Below, piece after piece: positions 24 through 42,675 of a stretch of 45,076 bases of DNA. The notes beneath the pieces are model-generated. The model had not been told where the DNA came from. It made no database searches and worked only from the letters and a program-made list of their open reading frames with translations. This DNA is from a bacterium. Lineage in GTDB: Bacteria; SZUA-182; DTGQ01. The translations under genes and the position numbers were made by a program. The stretch is taken from positions 1-45,076 of the forward strand of contig JBFLZW010000017.1 in the NCBI GenBank assembly GCA_040755755.1, in the 5' to 3' direction. The first letter of the stretch is position 1; every line of letters begins with the position of its first letter.

Positions 24-617
24 TTGCCGGATTGGTTGTTCTCTGCGTCTTCTGCGGGAGATCTTTTTTCCCTGTGTGCTTTGTGTCCTCTCTATATTAT
101 AAGCTTGGCTTATGTAAGTGCCATTCGGTTTAACATATTTATTAGCTACAGCTCGAAGGATATCGAAGATATAATGCCTGTGAATATTTTACTAAAGTCT
201 ATTCAAGATACAGATGTTTTCATTGCTGATGAATCCTTGGCTCCAGGAACTGAAATAAGTAACGAGCTAATAAATAAGATTAGTAAGACAGACATATTTA
301 TTGTTTTTTTCAGTACAAACTCAGCTAAATCAAATTATGTCCAGCAGGAAATTGGTGTAGCAAGGGCTAATAATAAATTGATAATTCCTATAGTGTTAGA
401 CGGCACAAAGCCGACTGGAATGCTTACGGGCATAAACTACCTTGACTTATCAAATCAACAAAAATACCAAGCAGAGATAGGACGACTATATAATTTTATT
501 AATTCAAATATTCAGCAAAAAAAGCAAAATCAACTTATTCTAGTATTAGGATTATTAGGTTTGGGTTATCTAATGCTTAATAATAGTAATAGTAAAAAGC
601 TTATGGAACAAAGATGA
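24..617 (+). CDS. TIR-domain protein with C-terminal membrane helix, coupled to hsdS
   Basis: A TIR domain begins at about residue 36 (FNIFISYSSKD, the beta-A strand and Ser-rich loop) and runs to about residue 160. Glu109 in SNYVQQEIGVA lies where the catalytic glutamate of NAD-consuming TIR domains is found. Residues 171-186 (LILVLGLLGLGYLML) form one hydrophobic helix close to the C-terminus, so the protein is probably membrane-tethered with TIR in the cytoplasm. The stop overlaps the hsdS start as ATGA, implying translational coupling. The start is unresolved: the longest frame opens with TTG, but the first 35 residues are unlike TIR proteins and the DNA there resembles spacer sequence; a later TTG near position 105 is another candidate. 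TIR domains in bacteria commonly act as NADase effectors in anti-phage defence; a role here as an accessory to the restriction operon is inference. Confidence 0.75.
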   Translation: MPDWLFSASSAGDLFSLCALCPLYIISLAYVSAIRFNIFISYSSKDIEDIMPVNILLKSIQDTDVFIADESLAPGTEISNELINKISKTDIFIVFFSTNSAKSNYVQQEIGVARANNKLIIPIVLDGTKPTGMLTGINYLDLSNQQKYQAEIGRLYNFINSNIQQKKQNQLILVLGLLGLGYLMLNNSNSKKLMEQR

Positions 618-1912
618 TGCAGCAGTTAAAATCAAAGTTCAAAGAAACTGAGATAGGAAAAATTCCTGAAGATTGGGAAGAAGCCATATTTTCTGAGGTT
701 GTGGATATAAACCCTATCAGGGAATTGAAAAAAAATGTAGAATCAAAATTTATATCTATGGGAGATATTGAAAGGTATAATAAAAAGATACAAGGATATA
801 TTTTTAAGAAATACAAGGGCGGTTCTAAATTTATAAATCATGATACACTAATGGCCAGGATTACTCCTTGCTTAGAAAATGGGAAAACTGCTTACGTGGA
901 TATTTTAAGTGATGGCGAAATAGGGACTGGCTCGACTGAATTTATAGTCTTATCTGCTAAAGAAGGGAAGACAATTTCTGAATTTGTATATTATTTAGCA
1001 ATATCTCCTGAAATAAGGACTAAAACAATTAAATCTATGACTGGAACCTCTGGTAGGCAAAGAGTTGAGAATGATGTTTTTGATACAATAATAATTAACC
1101 TTCCTTTTCCCAAAGAGCAAAAGTCAATTACCAAAATTCTCTCTGACTTAGACTCTAAAATCGAGCTCAATCAACAAATGAACAAAACCCTTGAAGCAAT
1201 TGGCCAGGCAATCTTCAAGCGATGGTTCATTGATTTTGAATTTCCGAACGAGGAAGGCAAGCCATATAAATCAAGCGGCGGCGAAATGGTTTATAATGAT
1301 GAGTTAGAAGAGGAGATACCGAAGGGGTGGGAGGCTCTACCGTTTTCTGAAGTAGTAAATGTAAATCCTTCCAGAAGGCTAAAAAAAGGGACTGTTACAA
1401 AGAAAGTCGGAATGGCTGATTTGCAGCCTTGGCAATCTTGGATACAATCATATCAAATAGCAGAATACAGCTCTGGACCCAAATTTAAGAATGGCGATAT
1501 CCTTTTTGCAAGGATCACTCCCAGTTTAGAACATGGTAAAACTGCACTCGTATCCATTTTAGCAGAAGATGAGATTGCTTTTGGCACTACTGAATTTATC
1601 ATCTTTTCTCCAAAGGTTATTCCGTCAAGTGTTTATATTTTCAATTTGGTGAGGGATGCAAAGGTAAGAGAAATAGCTATAGGTGCTATGACCGGATCTT
1701 CGGGAAGGCAGAGAGTACCTAATGAATGCTTTGATCACATTATGCTCCCTGTACCTCCTGAACAACTAGTGAATAGATTTGATAATAAGGTTTCTGTAAT
1801 GTATAAAAGAATTTCAAACAGTGCCAGAGAAATTGATTGTTTCACCCAACTCCGTGACTCCCTCCTCCCCAAACTAATGTCCGGGAAAATAAGAGTCAGC
1901 GTTCCGGGGTAG
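614..1912 (+). CDS. hsdS: Type I restriction-modification specificity subunit HsdS
   Basis: 432 residues with the two-target-recognition-domain plan of HsdS (Methylase_S family). TRD1 covers about residues 15-160 and TRD2 about 230-390, each opening with a variant of IPEDWE/IPKGWE and followed by a conserved helical spacer (LDSKIELNQQMNKTLEAIGQ after TRD1; a C-terminal helix ending LRDSLLPKLMSGKI). HsdS determines the DNA sequence bound by the HsdM2S methylase and HsdR2M2S nuclease. The two TRDs are unusually alike: both contain ARITP-LE-GKTA, a G-TEFI segment and MTG-SGRQRV. The start ATG overlaps the TIR stop. The next gene begins 5 bases after the stop. The cognate hsdM is not in this window and would have to lie upstream of base 1 or elsewhere. 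Confidence 0.93.
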   Translation: MMQQLKSKFKETEIGKIPEDWEEAIFSEVVDINPIRELKKNVESKFISMGDIERYNKKIQGYIFKKYKGGSKFINHDTLMARITPCLENGKTAYVDILSDGEIGTGSTEFIVLSAKEGKTISEFVYYLAISPEIRTKTIKSMTGTSGRQRVENDVFDTIIINLPFPKEQKSITKILSDLDSKIELNQQMNKTLEAIGQAIFKRWFIDFEFPNEEGKPYKSSGGEMVYNDELEEEIPKGWEALPFSEVVNVNPSRRLKKGTVTKKVGMADLQPWQSWIQSYQIAEYSSGPKFKNGDILFARITPSLEHGKTALVSILAEDEIAFGTTEFIIFSPKVIPSSVYIFNLVRDAKVREIAIGAMTGSSGRQRVPNECFDHIMLPVPPEQLVNRFDNKVSVMYKRISNSAREIDCFTQLRDSLLPKLMSGKIRVSVPG

Positions 1913-1917
1913 CAAAA

Positions 1918-2667
1918 ATGAGCGGAAATATTCCCCTTCGAGACCAGAAAATCCTTTGCTTAAGAAGTGGCAACCGATGTGCTATTCCAGAATGCCATAA
2001 GGAGCTTATCATCAATAAGACCCAAGGCGACTGTGAATCCATAATTGGAGAGATGGCACACATTAAGGGTGAAAATCCCAATTCAGCCCGCTACGATGCT
2101 GACATGACCGATAAAGAACGTAACTGCTACGATAATCTGATCCTGGTCTGCGGGAACTGCCATAAGATGATTGATGACCAGGTGAATACTTATACCATCG
2201 GGAAGCTGTGCCAAATCAAAAAACAGCACGAAAAATGGATTAACGAATCCACTGAAAAGGAAGTAGTAAATGTTACCTTTGCTGAGCTGAATGTTGTTAC
2301 GAGGTATTTGAACTCAGGCCAATTTGTTCCCAGTGAATCCTTTACAATTATTCCACCGAGAGAAAAAATTAAAAAGAACTCTCTTTCAGGAGAGATAGAA
2401 AGACTAATAACGATAGGAATTACCCAAGTCAATCAGGTTCGGCATTTTATCGATAATTGCCCTGATGCGGAGTTCGGAGAGCGGCTTAAGCAAAGGTTTG
2501 TTGAGGAGTACGAACGCCTGAAAAAAGAAGAAGAGCTTTCAGGGGATGATTTATTTTTCAGCCTTTTTGACTTTGCGTCAGGAAAAAGCAATGAGTTTCG
2601 AGAAAAGGCTGCCGGTCTGACAGTTTTAGTATATTTGTTTGAATTATGCGAGGTATTCGAGAAATGA
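1918..2667 (+). CDS. HNH-nuclease protein, probable ABC-3C effector component
   Basis: The N-terminal 90 residues carry a zinc-supported HNH fold: Cys21-Cys26 (CAIPEC), His48 in GEMAHIKGE, Asn73 in DNLILVC, then Cys78, Cys81 and His82. The C-terminal 120 residues are helical and charged, with no enzymatic motif I recognise; in ABC-three-component (ABC-3C) conflict systems the effector nuclease is fused to a family-specific C-terminal helical domain, and this arrangement fits. The stop overlaps the start of the small middle-component gene (ATGA), and the DUF2326-type ATPase follows, which is the usual ABC-3C gene set. The expected role is DNA cleavage licensed by the ATPase complex in response to invading DNA. 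HNH assignment is firm from motifs; the ABC-3C role rests on gene order and on the neighbours' families. Confidence 0.85.
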   Translation: MSGNIPLRDQKILCLRSGNRCAIPECHKELIINKTQGDCESIIGEMAHIKGENPNSARYDADMTDKERNCYDNLILVCGNCHKMIDDQVNTYTIGKLCQIKKQHEKWINESTEKEVVNVTFAELNVVTRYLNSGQFVPSESFTIIPPREKIKKNSLSGEIERLITIGITQVNQVRHFIDNCPDAEFGERLKQRFVEEYERLKKEEELSGDDLFFSLFDFASGKSNEFREKAAGLTVLVYLFELCEVFEK

Positions 2668-2891
2668 TACTCCCGACGAAGCATATCAACCTGTCAAATT
2701 CATTACTGGGAGTGGGGGCGGCAATTTTGAATTGCATGAACAAAGACAAGACTGTTTCCTTATTATGGGATGAGGCCCGTACATTTCCAGAAGTGAGGAC
2801 CTTTGAGCGATTCACTCTTGGACTGGATCTCTTGTTTATCTTAGGAATGATTGACTTCCGGGATGGCTTGTTAAGGAAGATTAAAAAATGA
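2664..2891 (+). CDS. ABC-3C middle component (small helical adaptor)
   Basis: 75 residues starting MILPTKHINLSNSLLGVGA. The opening MILP-KH, the central GVGAAIL and the TFERFTLGLDLLFILGMI segment match my recollection of the small middle-component family (MC6-like) found between effector and ATPase in ABC-3C operons; there it links the nuclease to the ABC ATPase. I chose the ATG at 2664 instead of the one at 2646 because it overlaps the HNH stop as ATGA and gives the usual family N-terminus. Its own stop overlaps the ATPase ATG, again as ATGA, so the three genes are translationally coupled. No catalytic motifs are expected or seen. Family subclass is from memory of the pattern and should be read as probable. 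Confidence 0.78.
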   Translation: MILPTKHINLSNSLLGVGAAILNCMNKDKTVSLLWDEARTFPEVRTFERFTLGLDLLFILGMIDFRDGLLRKIKK

Positions 2892-4633
2892 TCCACTCAA
2901 TTACCTGTGATAAGGAATCCTTCAAAAATGTCCGGTTTAATCCTGGCTTTAATGTCATTCTTGCTGAAAGAACCGAGGAATCCACCAAGAAAGACTCCAG
3001 GAATGGCCTTGGCAAGTCGACCTTGATTGAGATCATACATTTTTGTTTGGGCGGCAATAAAGGAGAGACCTTATCAAAGCATGAATTGGATGACTGGACC
3101 TTTACATTGGACATTGATTTAGCCGGTAAAAGGTATTCTGTAACGCGAAACACTCTTGCTAATAAAGTAGCCATAGAAGGTGATTGCTCAGATTGGCCCA
3201 TAAAACCGGAACTGGATAAAAAACATGGGAAGCAGATAATCACTAACAGTAATTGGAAAAGGGTATTAGGCGTTTTAATGTTTGGGCTCGAACCTTCGTA
3301 TGATGATATGAAATATGCGCCAACATTCAGAAGCCTGATTTCCTATTTTATACGGCATAATGGCCAAAGTGGAGCATTCCTTAATCCTTTCCAGCATTTT
3401 AAAAATCAAATAGAATGGGATAAACAAATAAACAATGCATTCTTACTGGACCTTGGCTGGGAGTATGCTGCCAGATGGCAGGTACTTAAGGACAGGATAA
3501 GAGTTCTTGATCAGATAAAGCAGGAGGCAAAATCAGGGGTTCTTGCTAATCTCGTCGGCACGATAGGAGAGATTGAAGCATTAAAAATCAGACTGGAATC
3601 CCAGGTAAGGCAGGAAGAAGAGCAACTAAACAGTTTCAAAGTTCACCCCCAATATAGAGAGATCGAGAACCGGGCTAATGAATTAACATACAAGATTCAT
3701 GAGTTAACTAACGCAAATATTGATGAGAAAAGGCTTCTTGAGCATTATGAGAAAAGCTTGCAGGATGAGGTTGAAGCGAAGCCGGAATCAGTAACCAGGG
3801 TTTATCAAGAGGCAGGATTAGTATTACCGGATTCTATAAAACAAAGGTTAGATGAGGTATTATCCTTCCATAAGCAAGTGGTAGCCAATAGGAAAGAGTT
3901 CCTGATAAATGAGATTGAACAAATAAGGAATGCAATTGCAAAGAGAGAGCAACAAATTCAAAGCCTCTCTGATGAGCGTGCAGAGCTGATGCAAATTTTG
4001 AAAAAGCATGGGGCACTGGAAGAATATACCCAATTACAGAATAATCACCAAAAGACCGTTGCCGAGCTTAAAGATGTTGACATTAAGCTTGCAAACTTAC
4101 GGAAATTTGAGCAGGGACGAAGCGCGGTCGCAGTTGAACAGGAAATCTTGCAGCAACAGGTTATTACAGATTTAAACGAGAGAAAGACCCAAAAAGAGAG
4201 GGCTATTTTACTCTTTAATTCCAATTCGCAAGCCCTTTACCAGAGTCCGGGGATACTATCGATTGATATTTCAAAAACAGGATTTAAGTTTAATGTAAAG
4301 ATTGAAAGGTCTGGCAGCCACGGTATCGGCAATATGAAAATTTTCTGTTATGACCTTATGCTGGCACAGCTTTGGTCAAGAAAGGAGAATAGCCCCGGAC
4401 TGCTGGTCCATGACAGCATCATTTTTGCTGACGTTGATGAACGGCAAAAGGCTTTAGCCCTGGAAGTGGCCGCAAAAGAGTCTGAAAGGCTTGGGTTTCA
4501 GTATATATGCACTATGAATTCTGATAATATCCCATCAAAAGATTTTAGCCCGGCTTTCCAGTTTGATAAGTATGTAAGATTAACCTTGACTGATGCCACC
4601 GAAGACGGCGGCCTTCTGGGTATAAGGTTCTGA
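2888..4633 (+). CDS. DUF2326-type ABC/SMC-like ATPase of ABC-3C system
   Basis: 581 residues. The N-terminal ATPase half has [12 protein letters not shown] followed by the Walker A motif NGLGKST at residues 39-45. About residues 185-415 are a long charged coiled-coil region. The C-terminal half carries the second ATPase lobe, with a signature-like [11 protein letters not shown] near residue 478 and a Walker B-like [15 protein letters not shown] near 505. This is the arrangement of RecN/SMC-related ATPases of the DUF2326 family, the motor or sensor of ABC-3C defence systems. The start overlaps the middle-component stop, and hsdR begins 8 bases after its stop, so the cassette is embedded in the restriction operon. 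Codon usage is AT-rich like hsdS and unlike hsdR, which suggests separate acquisition. Confidence 0.85.
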
Positions 4634-4641
4634 AGGGAAAA

Positions 4642-7600
4642 ATGCCCCGACTGATCACCGAATCCGAAGTCGAAGAAGCCTGCCTGGACATACTTGATGA
4701 GCTTGGCTATAAAATCGTTCATGGCCCTGATATCGCTCCCGACAGCAAAGAGCCTGAAAGGGATGACTATTCCCAGATCATCCTCAACAGGAGGCTGCGA
4801 CAGGCCATAGACCGGCTCAATCCCTCTATCCCGGAAGAAGGAAAAGAGCAGGCAATAAAGAAAATTTTTCGGAGTGAAAGCCCCGGCCTTGTCATCAATA
4901 ACCAGCACTTCCATAAAATGCTTGTTGACGGGGTTGACGTTGAGTACAGACAGAACGGACGGATAAAGGGCGACAAGGTCTGGCTATTCGATTATAAGAA
5001 TCCGAAAGACAATGAGTTCCTGGCCGTCAACCAGTTCACGATTATCGAGAACAACAGCAACAGAAGGCCGGATATTGTCCTGTTTGTTAACGGCCTGCCC
5101 CTGGCTGTCATTGAGCTCAAGAATCCCGCAGACGAGAATGCAACAGTAAGAAGCGCTTTCCACCAGTTTGAGACCTACAAATCAGAAATTCCTTCCCTGT
5201 TCCATTACAACGAAATCCTGGTTATCAGCGACGGATGCGAGGCAAAGGCAGGGACCATCACTTCAGACTGGGAAAGATTCTCTCCCTGGAAAACAATCGA
5301 CGGCCTTGAAAAAGCGTCTCCCGCCATCCCCCAGATAGAGGTGCTCCTCAAGGGTATGTTTGACAGGAGGATTTTCCTTGACCTGGTACGGCATTTCATC
5401 GCCTATGAAAAAGATCAGGATAAGATACTCAAGAAATTGGCAGGTTATCACCAATACCATGCAGTAAACAAGGCGATAGAGGCAACGATAAAGGCATCCC
5501 AGCCAAAAGGCGATAAACGCTGTGGTGTCATCTGGCATACCCAGGGGTCAGGAAAAAGCCTGATCATGGTCTTTTATGCGGGGAAACTTGTCCTCGAAAT
5601 GGACAACCCGACAATAGTAGTCCTCACCGACCGGAACGACCTTGACGACCAGCTCTTTGGGACATTCTGCAGATGCCAGGATTTAGTGAGGCAAAAGCCT
5701 GTCCAGGCAGATTCCAGGGACAAGCTTCAGGAATACCTTAAGGTAGCTTCAGGCGGGATCGTGTTCACGACAATCCAGAAATTTTCCCCTGATAAAGGGA
5801 GTAAATACCCGCTCCTTTCAGAGAGAAGGAACATTGTTGTCATTGCAGACGAGGCCCACAGGAGCCAGTACGATTTCATCGACGGGTTTGCAAGGCACAT
5901 GAGGGATGCACTGCCCAACGCTTCCTTTATCGGCTTTACCGGAACTCCAATTGAAATGACAGACAAGAACACCCGTGCAGTGTTCGGGAATTACATCGAT
6001 ATCTATGACATTGAGCAGGCAGTGAAAGACGGCGCAACTGTCAGGATATTTTACGAGAGCAGGCTTGCAAAGCTTGAGTTGAAGGACGATGAAAGGCCGA
6101 AAATTGACCCAGAATTTGAGGAAGTGACCGAAGGCGAAGAGGTAGAAAAGAAAGAGAAGCTGAAAAGCAGATGGGCCAGGCTTGAGGCTGTTGTCGGAGC
6201 AGAAAAACGGGTTAAACAGATTGCCGGGGATATCGTAAGGCATTATGAAGAGCGCGAGGAGGTAATTGACGGCAAGGCAATGATTGTTTGCATGAGCAGG
6301 CGCATCTGTATAGACTTGCACGACGAGATAATCAAGCTCAGGCCCCAATGGTACCACAAGGATGATGATCAGGGCTCGATAAAGGTTATAATGACAGGCT
6401 CTGCCAGTGACGGCGCATCCTGGCAGGAGCATATCAGAAACAAGCCACGGCGGAGAAAACTCGGTGACAGGATCAAGGACCCAAAAGACCCCCTTAAGCT
6501 TGTCATTGTTAGGGACATGTGGCTTACCGGCTTTGATGTCCCCTGCCTGCACACGATGTATATCGATAAACCGATGAAAAGCCACGGGCTGATGCAGGCA
6601 ATAGCGCGGGTGAACCGCGTCTACAAGGATAAGCCTGGCGGACTTGTGGTTGATTACCTTGGGATAGCGGATGAATTGAAGAAGGCTGTTTCCGAGTACA
6701 CTGAGAGCGGAGGCAAGGGGAAACCTATTTTTGACCAGAACGATGCAATCCAGGTCATGCACGAAAAATATGAGATTGTATCCCAGCTATTCCACGGCTT
6801 TGATTACCGGAGATTCTTTACAGCATCTGGCAGGGACAAGATATCCATTTTGGTAAGGGCTGAGGATCATATCCTGAAGCAGAGGGACGGCAAGGAGAGG
6901 CTACTGGCCTATGTAGCGCAATTATCAAAAGCTTTTGCGCTTGCGGTTCCGAGCGAAGAGGCATTGAGGATACGCGATGACGTTATATTTTTCCAGGAGG
7001 TCAAGGCCAGTCTCTCAAAATTCCAGAGCGGGAAGGGAAAAACAGGCGAAGAACTGGATTCTGCCATCAAGCAGATTATTTCCAAGGCAATCACCTCAGA
7101 TGAAGTGATTGATATCTTTGCAGCAGCAGGGCTCAAAAAGCCTGATATCTCGATTCTTTCAGACGAGTTTTTGGCTGAGGTCAGGGGCATGCCCCACAAG
7201 AACCTTGCTCTCGAACTCCTCAAGAAGCTCTTGAACGATGAGATCAAGTCAAGGTCGAAAAAGTATCTTGTCCAGAGCAGGTCGTTTGCTGATATGCTGG
7301 AAAAAACAATAAGAAGTTACCAGAACAAAGCGATCGAAGCTGCGCAAGTCATTGAAAGATTGATTGAGCTTGCCAAGGATATGAGGAAGGCGGCTGACAG
7401 GGGAGAGGAATTAAATCTCAGTGATGAGGAGCTTGCTTTCTATGACGCACTGGAAGTGAATGACAGTGCTGTCAAGGTATTGGGTGATGAGGCATTGAGG
7501 ACCATTGCGAGGGAGCTTGTCGATACTGTCCGAAAGAATGTTACAATCGACTGGACGATAAAAGAGAGCGTCCAGGCAAAGATTAAGGTTGCGGTAAAAA

Positions 7601-7701
7601 GGATTCTCAGGAAATACGGATACCCGCCGGACAAGCAGAAAAAGGCGACTGACACTGTTTTGGAGCAGGCTGCTTTGATATGCAAGGATTGGGTGAGATG
7701 A
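4642..7701 (+). CDS. hsdR: Type I restriction endonuclease subunit HsdR
   Basis: 1019 residues, full length for HsdR. The N-terminal nuclease domain has the PD-(D/E)XK pattern RRPDIVLF...AVIELK (Asp144, Glu158, Lys160). The SF2 translocase follows: Walker A GSGKS near residue 301, DEAH near 403 in [18 protein letters not shown] near 435 and motif [10 protein letters not shown] near 655. The C-terminal third is the helical HsdM-contact region. The enzyme translocates DNA and cuts far from unmethylated target sites as HsdR2M2S. An AAGGGAAAA ribosome-binding site precedes the ATG. It is the last gene of the defence operon. Its base composition is visibly GC-richer than the preceding 4.6 kb, consistent with hsdR belonging to a different acquisition event from the ABC-3C cassette. 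Confidence 0.96.
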
Positions 7702-13755: not shown

Positions 13756-13779
13756 CCGATGAAAGGGGGTGAATAATTG

Positions 13780-14638
13780 ATGAGAACATCAATCATAGAC
13801 CCAGCTATAATTATAGCAAAAGTAAAAGACCTTTGTCAGAGGTTAGAATTCCTTGGGATAAAAGTAGGAGATGCCAGAAAGCATCCCCGAATTTCTCCTG
13901 TCGATATTTTTAAATCACTTCTTTTGATACCTATCCTGAGACTCAAGAGCCTGAACCAGCTTGATAACAAGCTGCGACTGCCAGAAGCAAGAGATTCTGT
14001 GAGGATGATACTCAAGGCGGTAGTAAGATTTGCTCAGGCAAGAGGGTATCACAAGGTAACCTTATCCAGTGGCAGAAAGCTGATAGCAGGAATAGTGGAT
14101 GGGACCATGATAGGCAAAAAGCTGTGCAGTGTGTTCTATGAGATCGGTAAGATAAATCTGCTGGTTGATGTTGAGCGGATAAAGAAATAAGGGTAAAGAA
14201 CTTGAGGCAAGCTGGAAACTGCTCACAAAACATCTGCCTGAGGTGGATATGATGATTTTCGATGGGCTCTACTATATCAAGAAGTGGATCAACTGGATCA
14301 GAAGCCAGGGTAAAGACGTTCTTCTGATTAAGACCACAGAAAAGAATCTTACCCATATCCAGGATGCAGAAGAGTTATTCGGCCACTATGAAGAGTTTAA
14401 AGATGAGGTAGAGTATTACGAAGGTACTCAGGTCAGAGAGGATGGGGAAAAATTCAGCTACCAGCTATGGGCAGTAGGGGAGCTGACAGCAGAAGGGGTA
14501 GATTATCCCCTGAAGGTAGCCAAAGTCAAGACGGTCAACCTCATCAATAAGCAAGAAGAGACCTCTTACCTGATCACCACCCATGTGGAGTTAACTGGAC
14601 TGGAGATGAAGGAAATCGGCCAGCTTCGATATTTCCGT
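13780..14638 (+). pseudogene. Decayed DDE transposase (IS4-like), frameshifted and 3'-truncated
   Basis: The first frame (to 14190) has an N-terminal helical region and the first catalytic Asp segment LIAGIVDGTMIGK; a one-base frameshift in the A-rich stretch near 14187 moves the protein into the next frame, continuing as [21 protein letters not shown] with the second acidic segment [15 protein letters not shown]. Translation stays IS4-like to about 14638 (LEMKEIGQL), then turns into a different transposase. The third catalytic acidic residue and the C-terminus are missing. AGGGGGTGA is the original ribosome-binding site. The element cannot encode an active transposase. Exact IS family is uncertain. 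Confidence 0.75.
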
Positions 14639-14890
14639 TGCTGGCGACAAGATGAAACGATGGAGAAACTTCATACTGCTCTTCGGCAGAAAGTGAGGAA
14701 AGAATCGGGACGAGATGCCCAGCCCGGTGCTGGTATCATCGATAGCCAATCGGTCAAAACTACTGAAGTTAGTGGACAGAGGGGCTACGATGCTGGCAAA
14801 AAGATCAAGGGGCGTAAGCGTCATATATTGGTTGATACTATGGGATTAGTTCTGATGGTGGTTTACAGCCGGAAGACGTCAGTCTCATAA
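14639..14890 (+). pseudogene. Fragment of an IS5-family transposase
   Basis: In frame with the preceding remnant, the translation becomes [14 protein letters not shown], then [32 protein letters not shown] and TMGLVLMVV. These are hallmark segments of IS5-family (IS1031/IS427-like) transposases: the first DDE aspartate in IIDSQS and the second in HILVDT. Only about 75 residues of the middle remain. Similarity stops near 14863, where the sequence passes into the oxidoreductase remnant. The in-frame junction with an unrelated transposase makes a chimeric ORF by accident of deletion. Confidence 0.8.
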
Positions 14891-15862
14891 TTCGCGACTC
14901 CGCGAACAATAATTATGGAAGTATCCTGGAATATATTGCTGCAAGCTATAATTTGGCTGAAATCGAATCGGCACTTATAAGCTTCAAATGGATCCAATGG
15001 AAATTCAAAAGTCTCAAGAACATCGGGTTCGCCGGGGCAGAGCCGGAACTTTTTATGAATGCTGATAAATTTATCGAAAAGTATCATATCGAGCCAATTG
15101 CCTATGGCTTCAGCCCCTTATGGGCAGGTGCCGGATATGGATACTATTCTGATGTCCCCGCTCTTTATGTCCTCAAATTAATGGTACCGTTTGTAAGCAA
15201 TCTTAGTTCTTCCCCTGATGTTTTACGAAGGGCTCCCGAAGGCTTCCAGAGGCTATGGGAAAAAGTTGCGGAAGACCTGGAAGATGTTCGCCTGAACCAG
15301 ACCGTGGAAAAAGTTAAACGGGGTGATAACGAAAGTTCGATATCAATCGAAGTAACCGCCAACGGCCTTACCGAGACCTTCGACCGCATTATCATTTCCT
15401 GTGACCTGAAAGAAGCCCTCAAATTTATCGATGCATCCCCGGAAGAACAGGAACTGTTTTCCCAGGTTCAAAACAATGACTTTTGCATTCATATTTTGCA
15501 CGCTGATGGGATACCCTATCATGATGGAACTTTGTTATTACTTGCAGAAAATACCATGCCCGAAACAATTGGCCATGTTACGGCCATTATCAGCCGGGAA
15601 GATACTCCTGGAGTTTGGACATCGTACCAGATAGCTCCCCGGGGGGCATCTGCGGACAGGTCGAAAGTATAATCACCCGGAAACGATGGAACTACTTCCC
15701 TCATCTCATGTCAAAACCCAAACTCTGCATGATGGATTCTACGAGAGAATAGAAGCTCTCCAGGGGAAAAAGGGGAGCTATTATAGAGGGGGAATCATGA
15801 ATTTTGAATCCATTGAAAATACCTGTGAATATGCTGAAAAGCTCGTAGAAACATATTTTGCG
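14891..15862 (+). pseudogene. FAD-dependent amine oxidase-like pseudogene, 5'-truncated with two frameshifts
   Basis: The frame to 15672 gives mid-domain features of flavin amine oxidase/phytoene-desaturase-like enzymes (ALYVLKLMVPF, EGFQRLWEKVAEDL, IIISCDLKEALKFI, TSYQIAP). The N-terminal GxGxxG FAD-binding segment is absent, cut away at the transposase junction. Near 15648, a GGGGGG run, the protein continues in a second frame as ICGQVESIITRKRWNYFPHL, and near 15705 in a third frame as TLHDGFYERIEALQGKKGSYYRGG to EYAEKLVETYF. Homologues have these blocks in one frame (RRW-YFPH..., FYERLEALQG...YY). The gene is dead: truncated plus two indels. A transcription terminator follows directly. Confidence 0.8.
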
Positions 15863-15900
15863 GCAGACTGGCAGTCTTTATCTGCCAGTCGCCGTCTTTT
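15863..15900 (+). terminator. Rho-independent terminator after the oxidoreductase pseudogene
   Basis: The nine-base stem GACTGGCAG / CTGCCAGTC (15866-15874 with 15882-15890) has a seven-base loop and is followed by GCCGTCTTTTCC. It marks the 3' end of the decayed oxidoreductase gene. Confidence 0.7.
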
Positions 15901-15988
15901 CCTGCCAGGGAGTGTCTGCAATGCGATGCAGTTCCTACCGGGAAAACCTCAGACATTGGTTGTCGGTCCTCAACCATCGCCAGGGCTT

Positions 15989-17425
15989 CTATATCTGATC
16001 AAAAATCTTAATCCGGTTATCTTTTGAATCCACGATAAGAAGGCGCTTATCCGAATCCTGCACTATTGCCTGGGGAGTATCCAGAGCAGCTTCCCGGGAC
16101 GTGGAGGATGGATCACCGATTTTCTGGATAAATTCGCCATTGGTATTGAACTTGTAAACCGAGCCTTTCTCCTGATCCACAACATAGAGAAACCCGTCCG
16201 AATCAAAATAGATACGAGTCGGTTTGGAGATGGGAAACTCTTTCTGGTGAAATACGTCCAGGGTCCGCAGGAACCGCCCACTGGTGTCAATCTGGTGAAG
16301 CACGAAACCCCTGCGAGTTTGATCCAGCACGTAGAGATAGCCAAATCCAGTGGGGTCGTAGGCGATCCGTGAAGGAGCCAGAAAGCATTCCCTGCACGAG
16401 CCATAGCTTCCGAATTCCTTCTCGAACTCTCCCTCATTGTCAAACTTTTGAATTCGACTGTTACCGGAATCAACTACATAGAGTGCGTTATCATCGTCGA
16501 TAACAATATCGGTGGGTGTCTGAAACTTACTTTCGCCGGAGCCCAGGGAGCCAATAACCTTGAAGAAAAATGAGTAATTCGGGTCATTAACTGGATCTTT
16601 CCATGAATTAAACTTAGCTGGATTAAACTTTTGTATCCGGTTATTACCCGTATCAACTACATAGATGTTGTCATTCTTGTCAATAGCGATAGCCGAGAGA
16701 GAGTCGAATTCGCCCGATTTCGTGCCGCGCTTTCCCCATTGGCAAATAAACTCGCCATCTTTGCTGAACTTCTGGATAAGATTATTTCTCCCCTGGTCAA
16801 CGACGTAGATGTTATCCTGGCTGTCAACGGCAATTGCTACTGGATGATCAAACGATCCTCTCCCCATTCCGGAACCGCCAAATGATGACTCATAGCTGTA
16901 GTGATGATAACCCAGCCGCTTTTTCTGGCCGGTATCCGCACCTGCTGGTGGAAGCGGAGAATCCTGTTTGGGCAGTGGTGCAGTGTCTTTCTCGACAGGA
17001 GGAGGAGATAGAGCGCCTTTTTCCCCGGCTGGAGGTACAGTGTCTTTCTCCGCAGGCTCAGGCAAAGGACTTTTTGCCGGAGGCAAAAGTAAATCCTCTT
17101 TCTCAGAAGATGCAGGCCCCCTCTCGTTGCCGGCAGCAGGTGCAGGCTCAGGTGGTGTCTCTTTTTCAGCAGACGCAGCAGGCACAGGAGTTTTCTCCGG
17201 AGGCAGAAAGCCCTGCTCAGGTGGAGGCACGGGATTCCCTTCCGCTGACGGTGAAGAGGCCAAAGTTTGCGGTTTGGCACCCATTGCCAGAGTTTCATGA
17301 GCGTTCCGTGGCTCTTGTGCCTTTTGGCTATTGATAAGAAACGGCAGCAAACCTATCAGGCAAAACACCCCCAGCCGGAATTTCATCTGCCGATATCTGG
17401 TCTTGAATATTGGAAACTTGCACAT
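15989..17425 (-). CDS. Exported NHL-repeat protein with Pro/Glu/Ala-rich linker
   Basis: 478 residues. A hydrophobic segment at residues 15-33 (MKFRLGVFCLIGLLPFLI) is a signal peptide or anchor. Residues about 50-165 are a low-complexity Pro/Ala/Glu/Lys linker with repeated PPxEKD-type units. From about 190 to the end are at least six NHL repeats, each ending in a strand such as IYVVDQGRNNLIQKF, IYVVDTGNNRIQKF, LYVVDSGNSRIQKF or LLIVDSKDNRIKIF, forming a beta-propeller. NHL propellers bind protein, peptide or glycan partners outside the cytoplasm. No CxxCH haem motif is present. Start could be 17425 (AGAGG at a long distance) or the ATG at 17386, which begins right at the signal. It lies six bases after the lipoprotein gene. 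Confidence 0.88.
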   Translation of the reverse strand: MCKFPIFKTRYRQMKFRLGVFCLIGLLPFLINSQKAQEPRNAHETLAMGAKPQTLASSPSAEGNPVPPPEQGFLPPEKTPVPAASAEKETPPEPAPAAGNERGPASSEKEDLLLPPAKSPLPEPAEKDTVPPAGEKGALSPPPVEKDTAPLPKQDSPLPPAGADTGQKKRLGYHHYSYESSFGGSGMGRGSFDHPVAIAVDSQDNIYVVDQGRNNLIQKFSKDGEFICQWGKRGTKSGEFDSLSAIAIDKNDNIYVVDTGNNRIQKFNPAKFNSWKDPVNDPNYSFFFKVIGSLGSGESKFQTPTDIVIDDDNALYVVDSGNSRIQKFDNEGEFEKEFGSYGSCRECFLAPSRIAYDPTGFGYLYVLDQTRRGFVLHQIDTSGRFLRTLDVFHQKEFPISKPTRIYFDSDGFLYVVDQEKGSVYKFNTNGEFIQKIGDPSSTSREAALDTPQAIVQDSDKRLLIVDSKDNRIKIFDQI

Positions 17426-17431
17426 AATGTC

Positions 17432-18166
17432 TTATCGCCTCTTTTCGACCGGATCGTCTACGGTCACAACTTTATCTCTGGTCTTTTCCGGGGAGGGGGC
17501 TTGAGCTTTGAAGTTCGATACTGTCCTGCTGTTAGCTCGAATCTGGTACTTGAGAGAAGAAACAATCTGCTGGCATACTTCTTTGCTGAGCTTTGATGAA
17601 GAAGGACCATTGGTAAAGCCGAAAATCCTGCCCGCTGACATATCGCCGCTTTTATAGCAATTTCCCGTCCACAGGATATTGCCATTATCGACATCGATCA
17701 TCCGGACGCTCAAGCCGACGAGCGCAGCACTATCTTTGCTCTTTGCATATTCAAAATCGGTCACTGTTCCCAGGATCAGATATTTTACTCCCAGTCTGTC
17801 TCCCAGTGCCTTGATAGTCTCTTTGTCCAAAGAGTCCGGTTTTCGTATCCGCATTCCGCCCAGGGCAGCATTGGCCTGAATCGGATCGACGATATCTTCA
17901 AAAATGTCGGCAGCAAATAACTCGGTGAGAAACACTTCCATAACCTTCAGGTTAACATCCTGCTCCTTGCTGACATTATCAAACGGCAGGACACAAACCT
18001 TCCTGGTCGGCTCCCAGGGTGAATACAAGATATTCCGGGATTTGATAGTCGGCTTTGAAAAGACAGCAGTTCCGTGGTTTGAGCACCCAACGGACATCAG
18101 GAGCAGTATCCCGATTAAAGCGGATAAAAAGACCGAACGAAAACTTTGGTTGGCAAGGCGGTTCAT
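17432..18166 (-). CDS. Outer-membrane lipoprotein with CsgG/LpoB-like domain
   Basis: 244 residues from an ATG with AGGAGGAAG before it. A signal peptide ends in LLLMSVGC, placing lipidated Cys at residue 28. The mature part has the alpha/beta pattern of the CsgG, LpoB and GNA1162-like group: RKVCVLPFDNVS, VMEVFLTELFAADIFEDIV, IKALGDRLGVKYLILGTVTDFEY, SVRMIDVDNGNILWTGN. Such proteins are periplasm-facing outer-membrane lipoproteins that act as secretion-channel subunits (CsgG) or regulators of envelope enzymes (LpoB). CsgG itself is longer and has transmembrane hairpins that are not obvious here. The position between a beta-barrel gene and an NHL protein suggests a joint envelope complex, inferred. 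Confidence 0.8.
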   Translation of the reverse strand: MNRLANQSFRSVFLSALIGILLLMSVGCSNHGTAVFSKPTIKSRNILYSPWEPTRKVCVLPFDNVSKEQDVNLKVMEVFLTELFAADIFEDIVDPIQANAALGGMRIRKPDSLDKETIKALGDRLGVKYLILGTVTDFEYAKSKDSAALVGLSVRMIDVDNGNILWTGNCYKSGDMSAGRIFGFTNGPSSSKLSKEVCQQIVSSLKYQIRANSRTVSNFKAQAPSPEKTRDKVVTVDDPVEKRR

Positions 18167-18223
18167 GGGTTCTTCCTCCTTACAGTAATCCATAATTCAG
18201 TAGTAGGTTAAAATTAGTTTTGT

Positions 18224-20098
18224 TTACAAGAAATTAGCCCGAATTTGCAGCCCAATCCTCTGTTCCTTATTGTTATCCAGAGAATAAGTTTTAGTATACT
18301 TATAGTTGGTTGTAATCTCGTAACTTCTGAACCTATAGACAAGCCTGGTTTCCATGGTCTCAGTATCACCTTCACTTTCCTGCGCGTAATCGCGATCATC
18401 ATACTTGAAGCTGCCACTCCAGGTAAAAGGATCGAACCGCCAATCAAAGTTAAGAGCATAGGAAGTGTCCACTTTATCCCTGGTCAGGTCTCCATTATCG
18501 ATGGTCCTCATATCCTGCCGGTTAATCTGGGAAGAAAAGATAAGATTCTGAAAAGGGGTAAATCTGACGTCAAGCTTGGTATCATCGTTATGCTGTTTGT
18601 TCCTGCTGCCCTGGCTTTCCGAAATCCGTTTTCGGCTCAGGGAGTGTGAAAGGTCAATTTTCAGTTGATGGGAGATAAAGAGGCTGTAAGTAATGACAGT
18701 TTTGAACTCACGGGTAGTTTTGTCTTTGAGTTCCAAATAGTCGTCCTCTTCTGAAAAATCATATTCGGGGGTCAAATTGAGATGCGAGATCGGAGTCAGA
18801 TGGAGTCTCCACCGGTATTGCATCTCCCGCCTTGAGTCGGTGTCTTTTACTTTCTCCTTTACCAGCCTGGCGTCAAAAGCGTTCTGCGCATCGAGGAATT
18901 GAGGAAAGTCCGCGCTCCAGGTCCCTTCGATAGTCCGAGTGTCTTCTTCCGCATCCTGGGCATTATCCGTGAAATGATCGACATCTCTGGATTCGATTTC
19001 GAATTTTCCCAAAAGGTTAAGCCATTTCCGGGGATCGGCCTGGATTTCAGCGTCATAGCTGTTTATTGACTCGTCTTCATTTTCATCCTTGTTCTTTTCG
19101 GATCGGTATTTACCAAAAAGTCTGACAAAGGAAAACATCCTTTGTGATATATCCATCCGGAAAATATCCGCCTGCTCACCCTGATTCCCGTTATTCTGCG
19201 TCTTGTTATTCCTGGTATGCTCATCCTCGTAATAAGTGCTCACTGTAGTGTCTGGTGTAATTGTATACGTAAATTTGGTGATGGCAGTATGTATTAGCCG
19301 ATCGCCGGTATATACCCACTCACTCGATGGGTTATTGCTGCCGGGACTATTGGGATCCAGCTCATTTTTTTCGCTTTCTTTTTCTACCTTATAGTCGAGA
19401 TCAAATCTCAGTTTATTATTCATGAGAAAATGCTTCAGGCTGACCTGACCGACATAGTTCTCCTCTCTGATATCACTCCGGCCTTTGCCCTCAGCCCATC
19501 GGTCTTTCAGATAATCGGTTTTTTCTCCTTCATAGCCAAGCCGGATATTCAGGAAGTCCTGTATGTTATAAATAGAGCTTATTGAAATGTTACGAATGTC
19601 CGTTTCTTCAGATTCAACCGACTTTTTCTCCCGGGAAAAATCATATTTAACATTAATTTCCGGAAGAGACTCAGGTTGAAGGCTGAGATCAGCGAATCCT
19701 TCATCCTGGAGGAGCGTGGAACTGGTTTTGTTTTCAGACTTCTTGTATCCCATTCCAAAATCATACAGGCGGGATTGGACCTGAAATCTTCCATATGGTT
19801 CTTTCAGGCTGGTGTCCGGCTCCGATGATGAGCCTTTGATATACTCCCGCTCGATCTTCCCTCTAAGCTCACTTTCCACTTTTGTTTCCAGGGTAAGAGC
19901 AATATTATGCCTGATCTGGAGTTCCTGTCTCAGGTCCTTGGTGGTTTTTGCAGGTTGACTGCCGGCTGGGGTTTCATCAGTTTTCTCATAAGACAAATCG
20001 ATGCCAAAACTCCAGGGAGATGATGCCAGGGCTTCTGAAGCGGTAACACATAGTACGAGATGCACTACAAGAATCAAGATATGCGTCTGTTTTTTCAC
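18224..20098 (-). CDS. Putative outer-membrane beta-barrel protein
   Basis: 624 residues from a GTG start. The signal peptide MKKQTHILILVVHLVLC..ASEALA is followed by a mature protein made almost entirely of alternating-polarity strands separated by highly charged Asp/Glu/Lys/Asn-rich turns, ending YKYTKTYSLDNN...GLQIRANFL. A terminal aromatic/hydrophobic strand is the usual BamA recognition signal. Strand number suggests a large barrel of perhaps 22-28 strands. No TonB box, plug or POTRA domain is visible, so it is more like a porin-type or structural barrel than a receptor or two-partner transporter. It is the first gene of a three-gene operon with the lipoprotein and NHL protein (gaps of 57 and 6 bases). 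Function unknown. Confidence 0.8.
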   Translation of the reverse strand: MKKQTHILILVVHLVLCVTASEALASSPWSFGIDLSYEKTDETPAGSQPAKTTKDLRQELQIRHNIALTLETKVESELRGKIEREYIKGSSSEPDTSLKEPYGRFQVQSRLYDFGMGYKKSENKTSSTLLQDEGFADLSLQPESLPEINVKYDFSREKKSVESEETDIRNISISSIYNIQDFLNIRLGYEGEKTDYLKDRWAEGKGRSDIREENYVGQVSLKHFLMNNKLRFDLDYKVEKESEKNELDPNSPGSNNPSSEWVYTGDRLIHTAITKFTYTITPDTTVSTYYEDEHTRNNKTQNNGNQGEQADIFRMDISQRMFSFVRLFGKYRSEKNKDENEDESINSYDAEIQADPRKWLNLLGKFEIESRDVDHFTDNAQDAEEDTRTIEGTWSADFPQFLDAQNAFDARLVKEKVKDTDSRREMQYRWRLHLTPISHLNLTPEYDFSEEDDYLELKDKTTREFKTVITYSLFISHQLKIDLSHSLSRKRISESQGSRNKQHNDDTKLDVRFTPFQNLIFSSQINRQDMRTIDNGDLTRDKVDTSYALNFDWRFDPFTWSGSFKYDDRDYAQESEGDTETMETRLVYRFRSYEITTNYKYTKTYSLDNNKEQRIGLQIRANFL

Positions 20099-21138: not shown

Positions 21139-22563
21139 TTATCCTACTGTTGTCCTATCGGTAAGATTACTGCCAAGGTTGGTGACAATTTTTGCAAAAA
21201 CAGCCTGAAAAGAAGGTTTATTTTTATTGGTACTGCCTGCAATAGTAATTTCCTGGCTATTTCCTTTATCGGTAACTACAACCCAGAGGCGATAATGGGG
21301 AACCGAAAATATGATAATGATTCCCATGACCAGGATAATACATCCTGTCCATACCAATGGCACTCCCGGATCCCATACGACCTGAAGGCCGGTATATTTT
21401 TTTCCTGAATCGACGGAGATTAACGAGTACTTGTAGTCAGTTTGACCACCATGAGGGAAGTCGGGGAAACGGTGGAAGACCCATGTTTGCCGTGGCTGAT
21501 CATTGGCTGTCCTGATCTCCAGAAAGGCGGCAGGGTTATTCGGGACATTTGAGCGGCTGTCTACCTGCCCATTCTGGTTCATGTAAAAATCTGGAAAGTA
21601 GCGCAGGAGAGTGACCTGCGTCTTTTGACCATCTTTACCGGAAAAGTGGAAAGAGCCGCCTTCCTGCACATCAAAATTACCTATCGGTTCACCTTCCATT
21701 GTTTTTACCGTAACGGTCAATTGAGGCACTTCACCAAAACTGGACTGATAAAAGTATATCCCCTGGTAATTCAGCGGGGCATTGACCTCAATCTCTTTGG
21801 CGAAAACCTCTTTTCCATGATCATGAATTACCAGCAGGCTCTTGTAATCTTTGGGCCGATTGGTAAGATTCCCTGATTCATCCTGATAATAGGTTACTTC
21901 AAACTTCCTGCATTCTACTTCAAAATCAAGCTCCTTGGGACCATGGCCTCCAGACTGGAGCGTAATTACCTTCCCTTTCTGCCCTTCGACAATGTTGATA
22001 AAGCCTTTAAATCCCCTGGCTGCACCGATGATCGCTCCGGCAAAAATGAGAATTATGCTCAAATGGGTGATATGGAAAGCCAGACGGCTGAATTTGCCTC
22101 TTTCCGAGAAAAGGTACCATCCTGTCTCATTTTTTACCTTGTGCCGACAACCGAATCCACTCTTTTTCAGACCGGCGAGCACTGCCTCAAGGGTCTGGTC
22201 GAGAGATTGCTTTTTAACCAGGAGCTTTTCCTGAGAACTGAGCGCTTTGAGCTCATTATCCGTGATCTTCACCCTGGGTGACAGGATAAGCTGCAAATCC
22301 CTGGGCAGCCTTCGCAGCGAACAAAACAGCAGATTCAGGGTCAGGAGGGCTAAAAGTGCCATAAACCACCAGGAGTGATAGAGATCGAAAAACCCGAAAA
22401 CCTTAAAAACCTGATAAACCGGCTTACCGAACTGCTGCAGATAGATAGCCGGATTCTGCTGCTGCTGAATCACTGTTCCAATAATTGAAGTAAGAGCCAG
22501 GATGATGAGGAGAGAAATCGTTAACTTTAAGGAACTGAAAAATCTTACAATTTTTTTTACCAT
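21139..22563 (-). CDS. resB: Cytochrome c biogenesis protein ResB
   Basis: 474 residues from the ATG at 22563 (MVKKIVRFFSSLKLTISLLI). ResB features: N-terminal helices including LTISLLIILALTSIIGTVIQQ, helix at about 60-85 with YHSWWFMALLALLTLNLLFCSL, a third at about 165-185 (LAFHITHLSIILIFAGAIIG), a large periplasmic domain with KEIEVNAPLNYQGIYFYQSSFG, and a C-terminal helix WDPGVPLVWTGCIILVMGIIIIF. It partners CcsB in system II haem delivery. A TTG ten codons upstream is in frame but less likely. The gene heads a two-gene operon; an 800-bp gap separates it from the divergent exported-protein gene. Confidence 0.92.
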   Translation of the reverse strand: MVKKIVRFFSSLKLTISLLIILALTSIIGTVIQQQQNPAIYLQQFGKPVYQVFKVFGFFDLYHSWWFMALLALLTLNLLFCSLRRLPRDLQLILSPRVKITDNELKALSSQEKLLVKKQSLDQTLEAVLAGLKKSGFGCRHKVKNETGWYLFSERGKFSRLAFHITHLSIILIFAGAIIGAARGFKGFINIVEGQKGKVITLQSGGHGPKELDFEVECRKFEVTYYQDESGNLTNRPKDYKSLLVIHDHGKEVFAKEIEVNAPLNYQGIYFYQSSFGEVPQLTVTVKTMEGEPIGNFDVQEGGSFHFSGKDGQKTQVTLLRYFPDFYMNQNGQVDSRSNVPNNPAAFLEIRTANDQPRQTWVFHRFPDFPHGGQTDYKYSLISVDSGKKYTGLQVVWDPGVPLVWTGCIILVMGIIIIFSVPHYRLWVVVTDKGNSQEITIAGSTNKNKPSFQAVFAKIVTNLGSNLTDRTTVG

Positions 22564-23026
22564 GAATTCACCCAGTAAATTTTCCCTTGTCAATTAAGCC
22601 CTTGTGTTATTTGGATATTGTGTGCACTGAACCCTTCCGATCTACTGCCTTGTCTCTTCACTGTCAGAAACTCCTGATCCTATAATTCCGCGATAACCGA
22701 CACCACCTACTTATTTTGGAAAATGGGGGAATTAAAGCGGACACCTGTTCGTCAGATTTATTGATAAAGTTTAGTAAAAGTTTAGTAGATGATTTAAAAT
22801 CAAAAATATACCATACACAAAATTGAATGTCAATCTCCAAGACGTGAACCGGGCATGCTTTCAGTGTTTTTTTATCAGCCGCATGCCTGAAAATAATATT
22901 CTAATATAAGAGTAAGTAATTACCGCTTTATCCGTCCTACATAACAAATAATGTCTTCACCGCTTCTCTTCAGGGCTATATTTAGCCAAGCTTATAGGAT
23001 TAAGGCAATTTGTCAATCGAGTCTAA

Positions 23027-41862: not shown

Positions 41863-42675
41863 TTAAATAAGCAGGCCGCTGATCAGGGAAATTATCGAGG
41901 CTGTGGCTGCGGGAATGACCGGCAGGGGGGTAAGCGGTGCACTTACAATGGACGGAGTAGTCAGAGCAGTCGGAGTCGGAAGAGAAACCGGGATGGGGAC
42001 CGGCGTGAGAACAGGAGCGGCTGGCAGTACGGGTGCCACGCTGATCGGTGCAGCCGGAACCGGAGCGGGAAGCAGAGTGGTAATGCTCAAACCCGCCGGA
42101 GTAACGGCCGGGACGACAGGGAGCGGGATAACTGGTGCGGGGACAATCGGCACGACCGGAGCAACCAGGGTTGTAGCCACCGTGGGCAGGGTTGCGGTTA
42201 CCGGCGACAGGGTTGTGGGCACAGCAGTGGCAGTGGGTACAACAGTCATGGTGCTGGCAATGGTCCCCGGAAGGGATGCTTTGGGCAGGCCGGTGGCGGT
42301 TACTACCGCAGCCTGCTTCGGGGGCGGAAAGAGCCTGGTAATATCGGCCAGTAATCCCATTTCCAATATTCCAGGCAGAATCAGCGATTGAGGAATGGCG
42401 GATAAAAAGGGGAGGAAGGAGAAAGGCAGGGGATAGGCTGACAGGGAAGGGACCGGCCAGCTTCCCGCTCCCCAGAAAGGATCAAACCAGCATGGGGCAG
42501 CCGGAAATACCGCCCCGGAAAGCCAGGGGACGCAGGGGTAAGAGGCAGCAGGGCAGGGTGGGGGAAAATAGAGCGCATCAGCGGACTTCGGGGTGATACA
42601 TGTCAGGGACATGATAAGCAAAATACCTGCTGGTATCAGTAATCTGGGTAAAATATGAGACTTTGAACTCAGCAT
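41863..42675 (-). CDS. Exported Pro/Val/Ala/Thr-rich low-complexity protein
   Basis: 270 residues; GAAAGGAGAAAAAG precedes the ATG. A signal peptide runs to about residue 34 (cleavage near KSADA). Residues 35-110 are rich in Pro, Trp, Phe and Cys (PPPCPAASYPCVPW, CWFDPFWGAGSWPVP) and may be a compact disulfide-linked domain. Residues 120-260 are almost charge-free repeats of Pro, Val, Ala, Thr and Leu (for example TATAVPTTL, VVPIVPAPVIPLPVV, PAPVPAAPISVAPV) like an extended cell-wall or surface stalk. The opposite strand is also open (162 codons) but lacks a signal or binding site. No family recognised. Confidence 0.75.
   Translation of the reverse strand: MLSSKSHILPRLLIPAGILLIMSLTCITPKSADALYFPPPCPAASYPCVPWLSGAVFPAAPCWFDPFWGAGSWPVPSLSAYPLPFSFLPFLSAIPQSLILPGILEMGLLADITRLFPPPKQAAVVTATGLPKASLPGTIASTMTVVPTATAVPTTLSPVTATLPTVATTLVAPVVPIVPAPVIPLPVVPAVTPAGLSITTLLPAPVPAAPISVAPVLPAAPVLTPVPIPVSLPTPTALTTPSIVSAPLTPLPVIPAATASIISLISGLLI

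What the first reader, a model, noticed from the sequence alone, without database searches (positions are those of the whole stretch)
15989..20098. Three-gene envelope module: large beta-barrel, CsgG/LpoB-like lipoprotein, NHL propeller
The three exported proteins are in one operon with short gaps and match no named system that I recognise. A barrel plus lipoprotein plus propeller could be a secretion or surface-assembly unit. It lies next to cytochrome c maturation genes and two exported Gly/Tyr-rich proteins that would be natural cargo.
Basis: inference. Interest (0 to 1): 0.58.

Follow-up and report, generated by a model that had tools for sequence, protein, structure and literature searches.

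The report
Compact outer-membrane cytochrome-export-like gene module
Three neighbouring genes encode an outer-membrane channel, a ring-type lipoprotein and a propeller protein that travel together in distant bacteria, and they look like a small, so far unnamed cousin of the machinery that some bacteria use to put electron-conducting heme proteins on their surface.

Summary
The trio is real: on the minus strand, in order, a 624-aa outer-membrane barrel, a PelC/CsgG-fold lipoprotein and an NHL propeller, directly after resB-ccsA. It is conserved in 5 of 5 genomes of its order (resB-ccsA-trio in the 4 whose contigs reach that far). Barrel searches found 18 more barrel loci outside the order, plus one from a lipoprotein search. 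In these 19, a PelC-like gene follows in 19 of 19, an NHL gene in 16 of 16 testable, then a CEPC thioredoxin and a redoxin-10-heme fusion cytochrome in 14 of 14 testable. The barrel aligns end to end with barrels of Osc-like cytochrome-nanowire clusters (558 columns, E 4.5e-22). The own genome holds such a cluster with an OmcS homologue. In two Osc-like loci the propeller is inserted inside the barrel. Best reading: a compact Osc-type outer-membrane station for a c-type cytochrome, here uncoupled from its cargo gene and placed next to cytochrome maturation genes. The Gly/Tyr-rich cargo idea is not supported. Function is inferred; homology and linkage are shown.

The parts
18224..20098 (-). outer-membrane beta-barrel, 624 aa, short relative of Osc-type barrels ('B1')
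17432..18166 (-). PelC/CsgG-fold lipoprotein, 244 aa from the RBS-preceded ATG (ORF open to 18193)
15989..17425 (-). exported NHL propeller with Pro/Ala-rich linker, 478 aa
20275..21117 (-). ccsA/ccsB, System II cytochrome c biogenesis; upstream partner in 4 of 4 testable genomes of the order
21139..22593 (-). resB, System II cytochrome c biogenesis; upstream partner in 4 of 4 testable genomes of the order
22805..22833 (-). sigma-70-like promoter (TTGACA-17-TATATT, 11 of 12) ahead of resB; consensus match only

Best explanation
The trio is a compact member of the group of outer-membrane stations that includes the omcS-companion (Osc) clusters: a large barrel (OscE-like), an oligomeric PelC-fold lipoprotein on the periplasmic face (OscF/G-like) and a beta-propeller that docks on the barrel. 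It most likely moves or seats a c-type multiheme cytochrome across or at the outer membrane. In other lineages the same core is followed by a ResA-like thioredoxin and a redoxin-decaheme fusion, the probable client. In the window's order that client gene is absent and the core sits behind resB-ccsA, so the client would be encoded elsewhere in the genome. Shown: homology, synteny, co-inheritance. Inferred: ring formation, docking, client identity, export direction.
For: Barrel aligns over 558 columns with 12 Osc-type barrels, prob 99.4, E 4.5e-22. Lipoprotein profile against the own lineage's Osc-type lipoproteins E 1.6e-29; fold nearest PelC. The own genome has a separate locus with an OmcS homologue (2.5e-10 to 6ef8), barrel, three PelC-like proteins, PPIase and 25- and 16-heme cytochromes. 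Outside the order the core has a fixed order barrel-PelC-(PPIase)-NHL-Trx-10-heme: PelC 19 of 19, NHL 16 of 16 testable, Trx and 10-heme 14 of 14 testable, PPIase 7 of 16; CEPC in 14 of 14 Trx, ten CxxCH and a redoxin CxxC in 14 of 14 fusions. Pairwise-distance correlations across 21 loci: barrel-PelC 0.95, barrel-NHL 0.92, PelC-NHL 0.88, 0 of 999 permutations as high. In G722 and G584 the NHL propeller is inserted inside an Osc-like barrel, a natural fusion of two of the three parts. Osc roles: folding OscH, secretion OscE/F/G, morphology OscD (PMC13194489 passages).
Against: No cytochrome gene lies within the visible trio loci of the order, and the fused redoxin-decaheme protein was not found in G000-G008 (only separate redoxin or heme matches). 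The PPIase is missing here, and only one PelC-like gene is present against two or three in Osc clusters. The Osc gene-to-protein mapping is mine: Shen et al. 2025 could not be read and no Geobacter sulfurreducens Osc sequence was compared. The Osc secretion role is recent, and a review calls the mechanism speculative (PMC12307469 passages). The barrel model is low-confidence. Distance correlation partly reflects shared ancestry of the host genomes.
Confidence: 0.55

Rival explanations
1. A porin-cytochrome electron conduit (MtrAB/Oet-like): the barrel sheathes a decaheme cytochrome so electrons cross the outer membrane; PelC-like and NHL proteins are accessories.
For: A 10-heme cytochrome is in 14 of 14 testable clusters outside the order; the barrel profile weakly hits barrels next to decahemes in 4 genomes, one of them MtrB/PioB by Pfam. 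Seep-SRB OetABI/OmcKL clusters join a porin, cytochromes and OmcS-like proteins (PMC10553843 passages).
Against: 0 of 18 barrels match MtrB_PioB at E 0.01 while the control barrel scores 2.1e-75; the profile match to those barrels covers only 72 columns. The window's order has no adjacent cytochrome, and a PelC-like ring is not part of MtrCAB (recalled).
Confidence: 0.2
2. A polysaccharide exporter of PelBC type: barrel plus PelC ring passes an exopolysaccharide.
For: PelC is the nearest fold; PelBC is an outer-membrane exopolysaccharide transporter (title of entry 9h80). An Osc-type barrel has a sub-threshold EpsL hit.
Against: I saw no glycan synthesis genes in the neighbourhoods read; 0 of 18 barrels match the PelB C-terminal barrel family at E 0.01; linkage is to thioredoxin, cytochromes and System II instead.
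Confidence: 0.07
3. A secretion unit for the neighbouring Gly/Tyr-rich exported proteins.
For: Two such genes lie divergently beyond resB in the window, and G002 has one of similar make-up (19% G, 8% Y) at the same place.
Against: Homologues absent or unlinked in relatives; none in G004's locus nor in the 15 of 19 outside loci that were scanned.
Confidence: 0.06
4. A quality-control or heme-handling envelope module that assists System II cytochrome c maturation without export.
For: resB-ccsA beside the trio in 4 of 4 testable genomes; CEPC ResA-like thioredoxin in the other clusters.
Against: System II works at the inner membrane (recalled), so a conserved outer-membrane barrel and lipoprotein are hard to explain. 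Whether System II genomes in general lack the barrel was not tested.
Confidence: 0.12

Closest known systems
Osc (omcS-companion) nanowire assembly cluster of Geobacter
   Same: Homologous barrel and PelC-like lipoproteins (tested on Osc-like loci), a beta-propeller, a PPIC PPIase in 7 of 16 testable sister loci, association with multiheme cytochromes
   Different: Shorter barrel, one lipoprotein, no PPIase and no cytochrome gene in the window's order; resB-ccsA instead
PelBC exopolysaccharide exporter
   Same: PelC-fold lipoprotein paired with an outer-membrane barrel
   Different: No PelB barrel family match, no Pel synthesis genes seen, different neighbours
CsgG curli secretion channel
   Same: Same lipoprotein superfamily fold
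   Different: CsgG forms its own pore (recalled); here a separate barrel gene is always present, and the Pfam CsgG hit is below cut-off
MtrB/PioB porin-cytochrome conduits
   Same: Large barrel found near decaheme cytochromes
   Different: No MtrB_PioB match in any of 18 barrels; PelC-like partner always present
System II (ResABC) cytochrome c biogenesis
   Same: resB-ccsA share the locus; ResA-like thioredoxin in the sister clusters
   Different: The trio itself is not part of System II

Membership tests
Osc cluster | Osc-type barrel | tested here: met
   558-column profile alignment, E 4.5e-22; against Osc-like loci, not against named Geobacter proteins
Osc cluster | PelC-like channel lipoprotein(s) next to the barrel | tested here: met
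   One copy, not two or three; E 1.6e-29 to Osc-type lipoproteins, 24 of 24 loci
Osc cluster | PPIC prolyl isomerase (OscH) | tested here: not met
   None in 5 of 5 trio loci of the order; present in 7 of 16 testable sister loci
Osc cluster | OmcS-like and 26-/16-heme cytochromes in the locus | tested here: not met
   No protein with 3 or more CxxCH in the trio loci of the order
Osc cluster | beta-propeller gene | tested here: met
   NHL propeller; Osc-type loci carry a YNCE-like propeller before the barrel, so the propeller type differs
MtrB/PioB conduit | MtrB_PioB barrel family | tested here: not met
   0 of 18 at E 0.01; control 2.1e-75
PelBC | PelB C-terminal barrel | tested here: not met
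   0 of 18 at E 0.01
PelBC | PelC fold of the lipoprotein | tested here: met
   Z 15.8, rmsd 3.0, 148 residues aligned to 5t0z
PelBC | dodecameric ring | not testable with these tools
   only single-chain prediction available
CsgG curli channel | CsgG family above curated cut-off | tested here: not met
   16.5 bits against 20.8

The most novel reading that the evidence does not exclude
Barrel-PelC-NHL is the core of a second, unnamed Osc-like machine. Its usual client is a redoxin-decaheme fusion whose surface placement is thiol-controlled by a dedicated ResA-like thioredoxin; in the window's order the machine lost that client and was rewired behind resB-ccsA to serve cytochromes encoded elsewhere.
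Probability: 0.35. Interest if true: 0.72.

Novelty: new variant of a known kind. Interest (0 to 1): 0.52.

Why it matters
How multiheme cytochromes cross the outer membrane and become surface wires is an open question (PMC12307469 passages). A smaller machine with three core parts, a predicted client fused to a redoxin, a propeller found inserted in the barrel in some relatives, and a version tied to heme-attachment genes gives a minimal system in which export, folding and disulfide control can be separated and tested.

Tried and rejected
Rejected: CsgG, LpoB or Pel membership by family hits (sub-threshold or absent). Rejected: MtrB family. Rejected: Gly/Tyr-rich cargo. L074 first looked cytochrome-free because my ORF picker kept an antisense ORF; later scripts found its 10-heme fusion, and the second checkpoint note still carries the wrong statement. 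The barrel fold search gave only generic barrels at TM about 0.14, of no use. A viral contig scan found no relative. The RNA fold of the ccsA-barrel gap was unremarkable, z -1.03. Paper searches for a redoxin-decaheme-NHL or PelC-multiheme cluster returned nothing fitting; other Osc searches.

Dropped before counts: of 28 barrel-positive genomes, 11 were set aside after inspection (5 Osc-type, 4 with decaheme plus barrel, 1 with only a decaheme hit, 1 with nothing). Of 14, G722 and G584 were set aside as Osc-like and 5 weak ones (G006, G007, G627, G638, G732) were not inspected.

Caveat on profiles: the HMMs used for counting were built partly from the same loci; the independent point is that 18 of the 19 outside loci were found by the barrel alone, and PelC, NHL, Trx and 10-heme genes were then seen next to it. 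L205's PelC-like match is weak (8e-4). A lipobox-like pattern was found in 22 of 24 PelC-like frames by a crude regular expression, in two of them far inside a frame that overlaps another gene.

Full report
What is there. On the minus strand the window reads resB (22593-21139), ccsA/ccsB (21117-20275), a 624-aa barrel (20098-18224), a lipoprotein (18166-17432, ORF open to 18193) and an NHL propeller (17425-15989). A consensus promoter precedes resB. The barrel has only weak porin matches; the lipoprotein only sub-threshold LpoB/CsgG/GNA1162 matches; the NHL protein strong NHL repeats. A model of the lipoprotein (mean pLDDT 63.4) is closest to PelC: Foldseek E 1.7e-10 and Z 15.8, rmsd 3.0 over 148 residues. 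The barrel model is poor (pLDDT 52.8), so its strand count is open.

Conservation in its own lineage. The barrel was found in 5 of 97 genomes in a first search, all of the window's order. In all five the lipoprotein and NHL gene follow in the same order. resB-ccsA precede the trio in the 4 genomes whose contigs reach that far; G003's contig is 3875 bp. Identities to the window run 28-65% (barrel), 48-76% (lipoprotein) and 36-71% (NHL). The four other members of the class had no barrel match in the first search; with a later profile G006 and G007 gave short weak matches, not inspected.

A paralogous, recognisable cluster in the same genomes. The lipoprotein also hits a second locus. In the window's genome it holds an NHL gene, an OmcS homologue (E 2.5e-10 to 6ef8 over residues 39-413), a 24-heme protein, a barrel, three PelC-like proteins, a PPIC PPIase, and 25- and 16-heme cytochromes. 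Scanning genome contigs with the lipoproteins gave 80 loci, the cap, of 160 relatives; loci with a barrel, two or three PelC-like proteins, PPIase, 26-heme and 16-heme cytochromes occur in Zixibacteria, Nitrospirota and deltaproteobacterial MAGs, and a spirochaete MAG has the same set with its barrel not seen (titles). In the best-ordered loci (L058, L061) a 6-heme gene is followed by eight genes: a YNCE-type propeller, barrel, two PelC-like, PPIase, 26-heme, 16-heme and NHL. PMC12977616 describes an eight-gene block, GSU2500-GSU2493, after an OmcS-like gene and linked to OmcS maturation and secretion (passage); PMC13194489 gives the roles OscH folding, OscE/F/G secretion, OscD morphology (passage). 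Equating the barrel with OscE and the PelC-like proteins with OscF/G is my inference; the primary paper was not available.

The trio's barrel belongs to this barrel group. Profile comparison of 18 trio-type barrels with 12 Osc-type barrels aligns 558 columns end to end, probability 99.4, E 4.5e-22. Comparison with four barrels adjoining decaheme cytochromes, one confirmed as MtrB/PioB by Pfam, covers 72 columns. No member of 18 matches MtrB_PioB or the PelB barrel in Pfam; a control does match MtrB.

A third context. Using the barrel as query in 395 genomes of another phylum gave 28 positive genomes; inspection sorted them into 17 trio-type, 5 Osc-type, 4 with a decaheme plus a barrel, 1 decaheme only and 1 neither. 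A broad search of 386 genomes gave 14, of which 5 are the window's order, G698 and G520 are trio-type, G722 and G584 Osc-like and 5 weak ones were not inspected. The 19 trio-type loci outside the order share a fixed order: barrel, PelC-like (19 of 19, one weak), PPIase (7 of 16 testable), NHL (16 of 16 testable), thioredoxin and redoxin-10-heme fusion (14 of 14 testable); contigs end too early in L136, L156, L205 for NHL, and also in L162 and L168 for the last two. All 14 thioredoxins carry CEPC, the motif I recall for ResA; the one tested scores best among NCBIfam models to ResA (4.2e-27, below its cut-off). All 14 fusions have ten CxxCH and a redoxin CxxC. The fused protein was not found in G000-G008: separate redoxin or heme matches only. 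The own genome keeps a thioredoxin-like and a DsbD_TM (CcdA-like) gene elsewhere.

Co-inheritance. Lipoproteins of the window's order (5) and of the sister clusters (14) form one side of a branch against 42 Osc-type lipoproteins, support 97/94. Protein distances of the three trio members correlate across 21 loci (0.88-0.95; 0 of 999 permutations as high) and within the 16 outside loci (0.91-0.95); some of this is plain shared descent. Two relatives, G722 and G584 (one family), carry an Osc-like barrel with the NHL propeller inserted between its first about 205 and last about 310 residues, which argues that propeller and barrel act at one place.

Reading. Shown: a conserved three-gene core, homologous to barrel and lipoproteins of cytochrome-rich Osc-like clusters, that in the outside loci precedes a thiol-redox protein and a decaheme fusion, and in the window's order follows System II genes. 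Inferred: the lipoprotein forms a ring under the barrel, the propeller docks there, and the client is a c-type cytochrome. Against: no client gene in the window's locus, one lipoprotein only, no PPIase here, and no experiment. The electron-conduit rival remains open because a decaheme is the constant neighbour in the sister clusters. The Gly/Tyr-rich proteins are unlikely cargo: the 23368 gene has a homologue only in G001, where no resB, ccsA, barrel or PelC-like gene is within the fetched 11.2 kb; the 24542 gene has none in 8 relatives; G002 has a protein of similar make-up beside resB; a composition scan of 30 fetched stretches found such proteins only in the window, G002 and that G001 stretch, and none in the 15 of 19 outside loci that were scanned.

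Novelty. Searches of the paper library for such a trio or a redoxin-decaheme-NHL cluster found nothing that describes it, within open-licence papers only. I file it as a new variant of a known kind: it would work like Osc, but it fails two features of an Osc cluster (PPIase, cytochromes in the locus), so I do not call it an Osc cluster.

Noticed in passing
L207:10385-12868 and L208:10196-12703 (minus): NHL propeller inserted inside an Osc-like outer-membrane barrel, a natural fusion, in a cluster with two PelC-like proteins and a 20-heme cytochrome.
   Followed up: partly
L160:13756-15351 and 13 further loci: Redoxin-decaheme fusion cytochrome preceded by a CEPC thioredoxin; a conserved cluster for which no name was found.
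   Followed up: partly
L034:5703-13388: 2561-aa exported protein with 24 CxxCH motifs ahead of the Osc-like barrel in the window's own genome.
   Followed up: no
window 15989-17425: A CxxC (GSCRECF) not followed by H is conserved in the NHL protein in 4 of 5 genomes of the order and in 0 of 16 outside loci.
   Followed up: no
window 17432-17450: The lipoprotein's C-terminus ends V-E-x-R-R or similar in 5 of 5 genomes of the order.
   Followed up: no
window 13777-16027 (+): Transposase-like ORFs (by eye) beside a truncated, possibly frame-broken amine-oxidase-like gene just downstream of the trio.
   Followed up: no
window 24-7701: Type I restriction-modification-like genes with a TIR-like and an HNH-like ORF at the window start (read by eye from the translations).
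   Followed up: no
window 41863-42675 (minus): Another low-complexity exported protein, Pro/Ala/Val-rich.
   Followed up: no
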